The notes under the pieces: model-generated
Told to the model about the DNA's origin: nothing
Databases searched by the model: none
Seen by the model: only the letters and a program-made list of their open reading frames with translations
Shown: piece after piece, positions 17,992-20,900 of the stretch
Position numbering within the stretch: the first letter of the stretch is position 1
Layout: each line of letters opens with the position of its first letter
NCBI GenBank assembly: GCA_023105745.1
Contig: JALGQZ010000006.1
Location: 34,985,686-35,049,685 of the forward strand
Direction of reading: 5' to 3'
Length of the DNA stretch: 64,000 bases
Source of the DNA: Austropuccinia psidii
Taxonomy: Eukaryota > Basidiomycota > Pucciniomycetes > Pucciniales > Sphaerophragmiaceae
Program-made: the position numbers and the translations under genes

Positions 17992-20900
17992 AAGTGGAAG
18001 CAACTACTCCATCCAATCAAATGGATCTGGACCAGGAAATTCCAGCCATAAATCCAAAAGGCAAGAATGTCCTCCCAGAGGAGAGGCACAAATGGAGGAT
18101 GCCAGAACTTCCACCAGTTCCCAAAGGTTAGCCAGCACCTTTGAACCTCTTATTGAGAGTCCAGAAGCTGACATAACTGCTATTGCTGTTAGACCTGAAC
18201 CATTTCCAACAGGCAACTGTGGAAATTTATCAATCCCAATGGAAAAACTGGTTCCTGGCGTCAAAACAACAAGAGTGGGAACTCCTTCCAAGTCTTTGGA
18301 TAGGCACCATGAACTCTTATCTTCAAGTGAAGAAGTTCATGGGGCCAGAAAAGACAGAAGATCTTCTATTGGGTTGGACTCCAATGTCTGTCAAAGGACA
18401 AGTCCAACAGATAAAAGCTTGGTTGAAAAACCAAAGCATGTTATCAGAAGACCAGAAGAAGAAGTTGGCCCAGGGCAAGGACAACAGCCAAGTGGAAGCT
18501 CCTCAAGCATCCACCAGCAAAAATCCGCCTCAACAAGTGCCAAACAAGCCCAAGCAAGCCCCAAAGACCAACCAGAAGGGCAAGCAAAAGGCAAAGGGAA
18601 AGGCAAAGCCCAAGTGGAACAAGCCCTACCCTCAGAATTACAGAATTCCAAAGAAGGAAAAGACAGCCATGGACAATGTGTTCAATATGGCAAGAACTTT
18701 GATGGAATTCAAAAACAAGGAGGAGGAAAGATTGAACCAATCCTTTCCAAAGAAATAGATTCTGTAAAGCTTGTAACTTACTTTGAATCTTGTAATAAAG
18801 AAATTATGGCAAAATTTAAAGCATTTGATCATGTCCAACAAAAGCTGGGCAATGAGATAGTACAAGTTAAAGACCAACAAAAGACCATTATTGGCCTTGA
18901 AAATGTTAATAAGGCAAATATTTTGTCTTTGACGCAAATTTGTGAAAGACTTGAGCATAAAGTTACCTTACTCAATCAACCAGATGAGAATTCAATTTCT
19001 TTTATAACTGGACAGTTAAGAGAATTGAAAATACAAGTTCAAAACTTGGAAAATTCAACTGGCCACAATGCAGCTCTTTTTCAAGAACAATTGGAAAAAA
19101 GTGATAAAGCAAGACTTGAATTGAAAGAAGATATTCAATCAAGTATTAATAATATATCACTAAAAAATGAATTGCCAAGGCAATCCACACCATTTCTTGA
19201 CAGAAATGATCTTAACTTGAATAATGATTTACATCATACAATTTCAAGTAATGATGTGGAAACTGCTTGCAATTACAAAGACATTCCAAGATTAGAGGAA
19301 TGGCCAACCTTCAGTGGTGAAGGAGAATATAATCATATGGAATTTATGAAAACAATTGATATGTTCAAAGAAGACTTTAACATACCAGATGAATACATAA
19401 GTGCCAGATTACACTCATTATTTACCAAATCAGCTAAGAAATGGTATTATAAAATGAGACAAGACCATGGAAAACATTCCTGGCCTTGGTGGAAAGAACA
19501 AGTTATTTCCAAATGGGCAAATGATTCCTGGAGATTTAGAATGGAAAATTCTTTTGAAGAAGCCATTTTTAATATTGAGAGGGACAGGCCCATGACTTGG
19601 TTTCTTAAACAGAAGGACAGATTAACTGCCCTTCATCCTGATATGTCTGAACCAATGGTACATAAAAGGATATTAAGAAAGTGTGGTGGTGACCTTGAGC
19701 ATGCTATAAGAAGCAGATGTATTGAGCCTTGCTCTACAGAAGATTATATCAATGCTATGGAGGATATCACTACTAGAACAAAAATTGGAAGAAATTGGTA
19801 TAAACCCCCAATAGACAACAAGACTAGTGGGAAACCAATTTCAAAACCAAATAAACCACATGACAGACCTCCTTTGAAATGTCATAAATGTGGAAGCACA
19901 TCTCATTTAGCAAACACTTGTCCAAAAAAGACAAGAGTCAATGAGATAAGTGTTGAAAAAGTGGAAGACACAAAAGAAACTGATGTAACTTTACATGAAA
20001 GTGATTCTGAGCCTTCAGAAGAAGAAGAAGTATCAGGAGAACTTAGTATAGAAAATATTAATGTTTCTTTTGAGGTCACTGAGGTACATACTCACTTACC
20101 ACAGTACAGTGATGAATGTATGGATCTCATACATGTGCAAGATGCCAAAATGCAAAAAACCAAACCTGCCAGAGGTAAAGGTTATACAGCTGGGTCATCT
20201 TGTATCACTAATATTGTGATAAATAACACAGAAGCCAAGATACATCTTGACTCAGGTGCTTTTTGCACTTGTGTTGGGAAAGATTATCTTGACAAAATTT
20301 ATACCAATTGGCAAGACAAGTTGATGCCAATTGAAGGTGTAAAATTCAGCAGTGCTAGCCAGAATATGCATCCTTTGGGTATATTTGAAGCTACAATAAT
20401 ATTTCCTCACCCTGCAGGAAGTATGAGATTGAAAGCTGAATTTGTTGTTATGAATAATTGTACTTCACAACACTTTATACTTGGGAATGATTATCTCAAT
20501 ATCTATGGTATTGATATTAATAATTATAAGGACAGATATTTCACTATAGGGGAAAATAAAAGGCAAAAATTTGCTTTTTCTCCAGAAAGAAGAGAAATTA
20601 CTGTCATTCAACAAGTGAAAAATGTTAACAAAGACAAATTTGTGTCAGATCAGTCAAGTGAAGCACAAATTAGTCCTGAATTAACACCTGAAATGAAGGA
20701 AGAACTTATTGAAATTTTATTTCAATATAGAGAAGCCTTTGCTTCTGATAATGAACCACTTGGGGCTATAAAAGGCCATGAAGTGGACATTATGCTTAAT
20801 GTGGAAAGGCCTTATCCGCCACTATTGAGGAGACCAGCTTACCCAGCTAGCCCTAGGGCTAGAGAAGCATTAGAAAGTCATATTAATGAACTAATGAAAC

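What the first reader, a model, noticed from the sequence alone, without database searches (positions are those of the whole stretch)
17992..18758. A hidden second protein overprinted on gag in the +1 frame, conserved between two diverged retrotransposons
In the intact gypsy and in J the +1 frame of gag has the same start ATG (18309 and 60701), the same stop position, and strong peptide similarity (EKT..LL.GW, WLKNQS, PYP..YRIP, VFNMARTLMEF). In the 33 nt coding VFNMARTLMEF I compared codons directly: the four differences are all silent in the +1 frame, while in the gag frame they give V to L, Q to stop, K to Q and F to S. That is the mark of selection on the +1 frame. A further +1 stretch upstream (NQMD, ERH.WRMPEL) is also shared. 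Overlapping accessory genes of this kind are known in viruses; I know of no description for fungal gypsy elements.
Basis: partly seen in the sequence, partly recalled or inferred. Interest (0 to 1): 0.92.

Follow-up and report, generated by a model that had tools for sequence, protein, structure and literature searches.

The report
Spliced second gene overlapping retrotransposon gag
A jumping element of a rust fungus hides a second, spliced protein gene inside the start of its main gene, and evolution has guarded the hidden protein's sequence more closely than the main one there; it may act as a switch between the two.

Summary
The +1 protein is supported, but as a spliced gene, not one ORF. 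Joining 17813-17929, 17992-18126 and 18193-18758 gives 272 codons with GT..AG introns of 62 and 66 nt; element J has both at homologous sites. Nine J-type genomic copies lack intron 2 exactly; five also lack intron 1, one of them with an extra base gone: traces of reverse-transcribed spliced RNA. Differences silent in +1 but changing gag are 1.9-3.0 times expectation in all 15 pairs tested. In 29 copies picked by DNA, private variants are neutral in both frames; variants in 5 or more copies are +1-silent (7 vs 2.2, P=0.0013); those in 2-4 copies are not. Gag there drifts but avoids stops. Intron 1 holds the Gag-Pol start codon (17978), so splicing would switch products. A GTAAGT donor in both LTRs could build a split AUG for the spliced gene (inferred). 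The 120 homologues listed, of 333, are Austropuccinia psidii hypothetical proteins. No family match; a Rev/CERV-like regulator of unspliced RNA is my leading guess. No RNA or protein data were available.

The parts
15055..17250 (+). 5' LTR of the intact Ty3/gypsy element (3' LTR at 23880-26075)
   Evidence: 99.8% self-match at offset 8825; the ends TG..CA were read by eye
16386..17977 (+). AUG-free leader: no ATG on the sense strand for 1592 nt
   Evidence: 0 observed, 20.2 expected, minimum 8 in 3000 first-order shuffles; 24 on the reverse strand. The leader of copy J has 3 (8.5 expected, P 0.03)
16807..17812 (+). putative intron 0 (AA|GTAAGT ... TCTCTAG|TG), spanning the presumed primer-binding region; joining gives a split AUG (A|TG)
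   Evidence: perfect donor preceded by A in E and at 59178 in J, found in 63 of 68 loci; chance about 0.04 each, noticed after the fact; not seen spliced in any copy: inferred
17813..17929 (+). exon a of the +1 gene
   Evidence: open frame joined in phase; within the J family silent changes exceed expectation, e.g. L013-L043 6.5 vs 1.6 with 0 vs 4.6 replacement; little or no signal E against J at 52-55% divergence
17930..17991 (+). intron 1, 62 nt, holding the Gag-Pol start codon 17978-17980
   Evidence: GT..AG, J homologue of 63 nt; the J homologue is exactly absent in 4 copies and absent with one further base in a fifth, L041
17992..18126 (+). exon b of the +1 gene (first ATG in the +1 frame at 18021)
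18127..18192 (+). intron 2, 66 nt (multiple of 3; +1 stops inside, gag frame open)
   Evidence: GT..AG, J homologue of 63 nt; +1 stops; the J homologue is exactly absent in 9 copies
18193..18758 (+). exon c of the +1 gene to TAG; helices, basic linker, C-terminal helix in a low-confidence model
17978..23746 (+). single gag-pol ORF, 1922 aa; its first 260 codons overlap the +1 gene
   Evidence: RT, RNase H, integrase domains
60183..61153 (+). homologous +1 gene of element J: exon a 60183-60326, intron 1 60327-60389, exon b 60390-60521, intron 2 60522-60584, exon c from 60585 with its stop codon ending at 61153; broken by TAA in exons a and c
   Evidence: the exon a start and the last base were read by eye

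Best explanation
Each full transcript of this Ty3/gypsy element can follow two fates. Unspliced RNA has a long AUG-free leader in E, so its first AUG is 17978 and it makes Gag-Pol. Spliced RNA loses introns 1 and 2 (shown indirectly, through J-type retrocopies); intron 1 carries away the Gag-Pol AUG, and the exons join in the +1 frame to make a separate basic protein of about 270 aa. An LTR donor probably also joins exon 0 to exon a, creating a split AUG and removing the primer-binding region (inferred). The protein sequence is under purifying selection, while the overlapping gag N-terminus mainly has to stay open. Most likely role, inferred from anatomy alone: an accessory RNA-binding regulator that helps unspliced element RNA escape splicing or leave the nucleus, as CERV does for Cer1 and Rev/Rex for retroviruses. 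I give that role about 0.35; the confidence below is for the gene, its splicing and the switch.
For: Exon/intron structure at homologous sites in E and J. Nine copies without intron 2; the three read over 9.5 kb have gag-pol downstream. Excess of +1-silent/gag-changing differences in 15 of 15 pairs and in E against each of three E-lineage copies. Private variants neutral, variants in 5 or more copies +1-silent. Stops in gag rarer than expected and far rarer than if only +1 were selected. AUG-free leader of E. Split-AUG donor. Several of the 20 MF-1 proteins read carry the same joins. Protein pI 9.6, tail pI 10.2.
Against: No RNA-seq, ribosome or peptide data. No E-type intron 2 junction was found (0 at up to 2 mismatches); the nine intron-less copies are J-type. 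Variants in 2-4 copies show no +1 signal (5 silent vs 5.4 expected) and are instead gag-silent in excess (11 vs 6.0; likewise 16 vs 8.8 for 2-5 copies). The decisive shared class holds only 10 variants. L076 against L077 shows no excess (1.0 vs 1.8 at 1.4% divergence). +1 codon usage in exon c is unlike pol while the gag frame's is closer. Exon a shows little or nothing between E and J. Copy J and three of five J copies checked have ATGs in the leader. Intron 0 is not seen spliced anywhere. No domain match of note, so the function is a guess.
Confidence: 0.86

Rival explanations
1. The +1 protein is a second structural or nucleocapsid-like component (RNA chaperone or packaging protein) rather than an export or splicing regulator.
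For: Lysine-rich linker without predicted structure between helical parts (low-confidence model).
Against: Gag has a CCHC zinc-knuckle stretch of its own (weak zf-CCHC match at residues 634-650, E 0.034, below Pfam's cut-off); a protein made only from spliced RNA fits a regulator better.
Confidence: 0.3
2. The gag frame of 17978-18758 is not translated: Gag starts downstream, and only the +1 gene is coding here.
For: The gag-frame sequence is little constrained: gag-silent/+1-changing differences fall below expectation while gag-changing/+1-silent ones are doubled; E-J gag identity, 0.395, equals that of simulations without any selection. L078 has lost the gag ATG and L076 has a gag stop at codon 14 while their +1 exon c is open.
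Against: Stops in gag are avoided (4.5 vs 11.0 expected for E-J_L010, 1.0 vs 4.1 for J-K; 1 against about 11-12 in simulations with +1-only selection), whereas in the control capsid region alternative-frame stops are not avoided among gag-silent changes. With +1 kept and codons resampled, 0 of 2000 reach the observed gag score. AUG 17978 is the first in the leader of E.
Confidence: 0.12
3. The +1 exons are an alternative N-terminus of Gag, fused to the gag frame by a -1 shift at the +1 stop.
For: Six of the 120 listed MF-1 proteins run on past the +1 end, at least four of them plainly into the gag frame (P0011, P0021, P0068, P0103, P0104, P0116).
Against: A stop stands at the end of the +1 frame in E, in most forward J copies read and in K, and I saw no shared slippery site by eye; such models can come from indels in decayed copies.
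Confidence: 0.04
4. Chance: +1 similarity is a by-product of selection on gag and of composition.
For: Low-complexity K/Q/P-rich stretches keep several frames open.
Against: 0 of 2000 resamplings and none of 300 gag-only simulations reach the observed +1 identity; precise intron-less copies.
Confidence: 0.02

Closest known systems
Cer1 CERV protein (C. elegans Ty3/gypsy element; PMC10309623, passages read)
   Same: Extra protein made from a spliced mRNA of a Ty3/gypsy element that makes gag-pol from unspliced RNA; part of it read in a frame different from gag.
   Different: CERV exons 1-3 share the gag frame and exon 4 is in another; [quoted passage not shown] Here all exons found are in the +1 frame, upstream of or over gag. 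No homology between them was tested; CERV function was shown by experiment, here nothing is.
BARE1 spliced Gag RNA (barley; PMC3735527, passages read)
   Same: A short intron in the internal region changes the product by a frame change.
   Different: There splicing ends the protein after gag to raise Gag; no new protein. Genomic copies of its spliced RNA could not be amplified; here nine were found.
Retroviral Rev/Rex and other overlapping genes from spliced mRNAs (recalled; start of an HTLV-1 Rex abstract seen in the listing)
   Same: Compact, basic, spliced, overlapping another frame.
   Different: No sequence relation tested; no response element sought.
Plant LTR elements with additional ORFs (review PMC7264820, passages read)
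   Same: Accessory proteins beyond gag-pol.
   Different: The passages seen describe ORFs 3' of pol, sense or antisense, not over gag.

Membership tests
Ty3/gypsy LTR retrotransposon | flanking LTRs and RT-RNase H-integrase order | tested here: met
   LTR pair; Pfam RVT_1, RT_RNaseH, Integrase_H2C2, rve in that order
Overprinted (dual-coding) gene pair | both frames under constraint in the same stretch | tested here: met
   +1: amino-acid constraint; gag: stop avoidance and slight sequence constraint only
Spliced accessory gene of a retroelement | exons joined in mature RNA | tested here: met
   indirect: intron-less DNA copies for introns 1 and 2 in J-type elements; none of E type; intron 0 not shown; RNA not available
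CERV/Rev-like RNA export factor | needed for nuclear export of unspliced RNA | not testable with these tools
   needs cell experiments
CERV/Rev-like RNA export factor | basic RNA-binding stretch and nuclear export signal | tested here: inconclusive
   tail pI 10.2, one loose NES-like match IGTMNSYLQV
Any known protein family | profile match | tested here: not met
   no Pfam match for the spliced product at E 1 or for exon c at E 0.1; of 28 aligned members five families hit one member each, best E 0.011; PDB profile search: one hit, E 0.03, an isopropylmalate synthase

The most novel reading that the evidence does not exclude
A fungal Ty3/gypsy family carries a Rev/CERV-like regulatory gene overprinted on gag. 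Alternative splicing from a donor in the LTR builds the regulator's own AUG across a splice junction, removes the Gag-Pol AUG and removes the primer-binding region, so one splicing decision sorts RNA into regulator mRNA or genome and Gag-Pol mRNA.
Probability: 0.3. Interest if true: 0.87.

Novelty: new variant of a known kind. Interest (0 to 1): 0.74.

Why it matters
LTR elements make up most of some rust genomes (A. psidii: over 90% covered by TEs, mainly Gypsy; PMC8063080 passages). A conserved accessory gene in such a family means these elements need more than gag-pol, and a splicing switch that removes the Gag-Pol AUG would explain how one element RNA serves two products. Hundreds of predicted proteins match one or other frame of this locus (333 and 783 at E <= 1e-3; the 120 listed in each case are A. 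psidii 'hypothetical proteins'). I found no description of such a gene in fungal gypsy elements in the paper searches (listings, with passages of four papers only; most subscription papers are not held).

Tried and rejected
Considered and rejected: a single +1 ORF from ATG 18309 (frame open upstream, J has TAA after three codons); -1 frameshift fusion to gag; chance openness.

Led nowhere: viral contigs gave no relative; Pfam, PDB-sequence and Rfam gave nothing of use; the AlphaFold model of exon c has mean pLDDT 57.9, so no fold search was made. E-type intron 2 junction: 0 copies. The intron 1 junction pattern and an unspliced denominator pattern did not complete, so the share of intron-less copies is unknown. 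Only the best 120 of 333 and of 783 homologues were visible, so whether other rusts have the gene is open. A gap near the primer-binding region in L070/L071 also occurs in unspliced L013, so it is not an intron. In one search my join of the exons was out of phase; its 'spliced' rows are not used.

Rows dropped: L053 and L044 (not over 90% ungapped identity to L010), leaving 58 of 60; there 6 of 58 copies have a +1 stop and 8 of 58 a gag stop in exon c. One search used 29 of 29 other DNA-picked J copies (30 loci were cut of the 40 places listed) and 28 of 30 protein-picked ones. One search used 6 of 8 J-side loci (L028 and L044 not located by the exact anchor). In the protein-picked set private variants are +1-silent-rich (26 vs 12.8), as that picking would cause, so I rely on the DNA-picked set; its shared class (5 or more copies) still gives 19 vs 6.3 (P=0.038 against private). 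L076-L078 and L039-L068 were picked by +1 protein score, which favours the +1 frame.

Full report
What the window is. The window is G000:C6:34985686-35049685 of a 1.015 Gb, 84-contig assembly. The 120 homologues listed, of 333, are all from Austropuccinia psidii MF-1, and 34% GC and size agree with that species (PMC8063080 passages). I take it as A. psidii or very close; the genome itself is unnamed. The intact element (E) has LTRs 15055-17250 and 23880-26075 and one ORF 17978-23746 with RT, RNase H and integrase. The 40 places scored for 17992-18758, the window's own included, all match at 100% to the whole percent.

The gene is spliced. The +1 frame has two blocks separated by stops. A 66-nt stretch with GT..AG ends, beginning right after PVPK and ending right before LNHFQ, restores one frame, and a second, of 62 nt, restores the frame to an upstream block. 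J has introns of 63 and 63 nt at the homologous places with the same phase. The product of E is 272 residues, pI 9.6, counting the putative split start codon. Several of the 20 MF-1 proteins that I read carry the same joins.

Indirect but precise evidence of splicing. A protein search of the genome returned five matches running unbroken over the exon b/c junction. L039, L042 and L043 lack both introns exactly, L041 lacks both with one further base missing at junction 1, and L040 lacks only intron 2. A pattern search for junction 2 (up to 2 mismatches) found 8 copies, none for the reversed control. Four of these were new: L072 lacks both introns and L073-L075 lack only intron 2. With L043, which that pattern missed, this makes 9 copies. 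In the 9.5 kb stretches round L039, L042 and L043 the LTR-leader sequence lies upstream and gag-pol follows; their 3' ends were not reached. I infer that spliced element RNA has been reverse transcribed and integrated, several times to judge by the differences among copies. No E-type junction copy was found.

Selection. E and J agree at 58.6% of +1 residues and 39.5% of gag residues. If J keeps its gag protein but uses random synonymous codons, +1 identity falls to 0.29 (maximum 0.37; 0 of 2000 reach the observed score). The converse also holds, more weakly: with +1 kept, gag identity is 0.31 (maximum 0.41, above the observed 0.395), but 0 of 2000 reach the observed similarity score. That null ignores shared ancestry, so I also simulated divergence. 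With only gag selected, +1 identity stays at or below 0.41 and +1 gathers 8-9 stops. With only +1 selected at strengths bracketing the observed +1 identity, gag identity is 0.30-0.33 and gag gathers 11-12 stops, against 0.395 and 1 observed; with no selection at all gag identity is also 0.395, with 7 stops. So +1 is constrained at residue level, and gag mainly to stay open. Sorting every difference by its effect in both frames gives, for E against J_L010, +1-silent/gag-changing 84.5 observed vs 42.0 expected, +1-changing/gag-silent 23.5 vs 51.9, gag stops 4.5 vs 11.0. For J_L010 against K (L044) the figures are 33 vs 16.4, 14.5 vs 19.9 and 1.0 vs 4.1. The first ratio is 1.87-3.04 and the second 0.33-0.73 in all 15 (non-independent) pairs of six sequences. 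E against three E-lineage copies gives 12.0 vs 4.7, 12.0 vs 3.8 and 34.5 vs 12.5 for the first class; two of these copies against each other (1.4% apart) give 1.0 vs 1.8 (copies picked by +1 score). As control, the capsid region behaves as single-coding: gag-silent changes doubled, alternative-frame stops not avoided among them.

Many copies. In 29 J copies picked by DNA similarity alone, compared with copy L010, private variants in exon c match neutrality in both frames (+1 silent 20 vs 20.7, changing 67 vs 66.4, stop 4 vs 4.9; gag silent 20 vs 23.0, changing 65 vs 64.3, stop 6 vs 4.7). Variants in 5 or more copies (10 in all) are 7 silent vs 2.2 and 2 changing vs 7.2 in +1 (Fisher against private P=0.0013), and 0 silent vs 2.5 and 9 changing vs 7.0 in gag. 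Against my reading, the 24 variants in 2-4 copies show no +1 signal (5 silent vs 5.4) and are gag-silent in excess (11 vs 6.0). Mutations after insertion look neutral; those carried by many copies respect the +1 protein.

The start. Exon a shows coding constraint inside the J family (L013 against L043: 6.5 silent vs 1.6 expected, 0 changing vs 4.6), with little or nothing between E and J, yet holds no AUG. Its upstream edge is an acceptor-like TCTCTAG|TG. In the stretches scanned, each LTR carries one perfect donor preceded by A, AA|GTAAGT at 16807 and 59178, found in 63 of 68 loci (chance about 0.04 each, noticed after the fact). Joining makes ATA ATG TCT TCC in E and ACA ATG TCT TTA in J: a split AUG in phase with exon a, by an intron of 1006 (E) or 1005 nt (J). 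MF-1 protein P0010 begins MMSSIRES, which such a join could give. That none of the copies read lacks intron 0 would be expected, since its loss removes the presumed primer-binding region. This step is inferred. If it is wrong, the first AUG of the spliced RNA of E is 18021, and 60392 is the first in the +1 frame of J.

How it may work. The sense strand of E has no ATG from 16386 to 17977 (20.2 expected), so unspliced RNA is set up to start at 17978. The leader of copy J has 3 (8.5 expected); of five J copies checked over 640 nt, two have none, one has one and two have two. The Gag-Pol AUG lies in intron 1 in E and in J (60376), so splicing takes Gag-Pol's start away and leaves the +1 gene. Removing intron 2 alone (66 or 63 nt) keeps gag in frame. 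Exon c is predicted, at low confidence, as helices, a disordered basic linker and a last helix. With no family match, the role is inferred from anatomy: a spliced, basic accessory protein of an element that needs its RNA unspliced. CERV of Cer1 is the closest case in print that I saw (passages). The main alternative is a structural RNA-binding protein.

Which frame is older? Codon usage in exon c is unlike pol for +1 (-0.10) and nearer to it for gag (0.17; capsid 0.25). This points to +1 as the newcomer, but the two frames force each other's composition, so I leave it open.

Limits. The share of intron-less copies could not be measured.

Noticed in passing
window 59690-59790; L010, L013, L069-L071: The block CTTACATTTGGGGGCCTGGCC at the LTR end/primer-binding region is present a second time downstream in L010 and L069, and the stretch between is missing in L013, L070 and L071: copies differ by gain or loss between the repeats.
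   Followed up: partly
L040, L073, L074, L075: Copies lacking only intron 2 keep the Gag-Pol AUG; intron 2 is a multiple of 3 in E and J, so a singly spliced RNA could make Gag-Pol with a 21-22 residue gap.
   Followed up: no
window 16386-17977: 1592 nt without a sense ATG while the reverse strand has 24, reaching well into the LTR; it may mark the transcribed leader.
   Followed up: partly
window 53576-57101 (minus strand): A gag-pol relative at about 47-65% identity whose matches start at residue 748 of the E polyprotein; no +1 gene or gag N-terminus was found there at E 1e-3 (in which the +1 query was mis-joined but the gag query was sound).
   Followed up: no
MF-1 proteins P0120 and P0224: Adjacent tags O181_115667 (+1 frame) and O181_115668 (gag frame), both with longest contig 2117 bp: probably the same locus annotated in both frames.
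   Followed up: no
window 40139-42302: An 82% relative of the E LTR; the match list shows no E internal region beside it.
   Followed up: no
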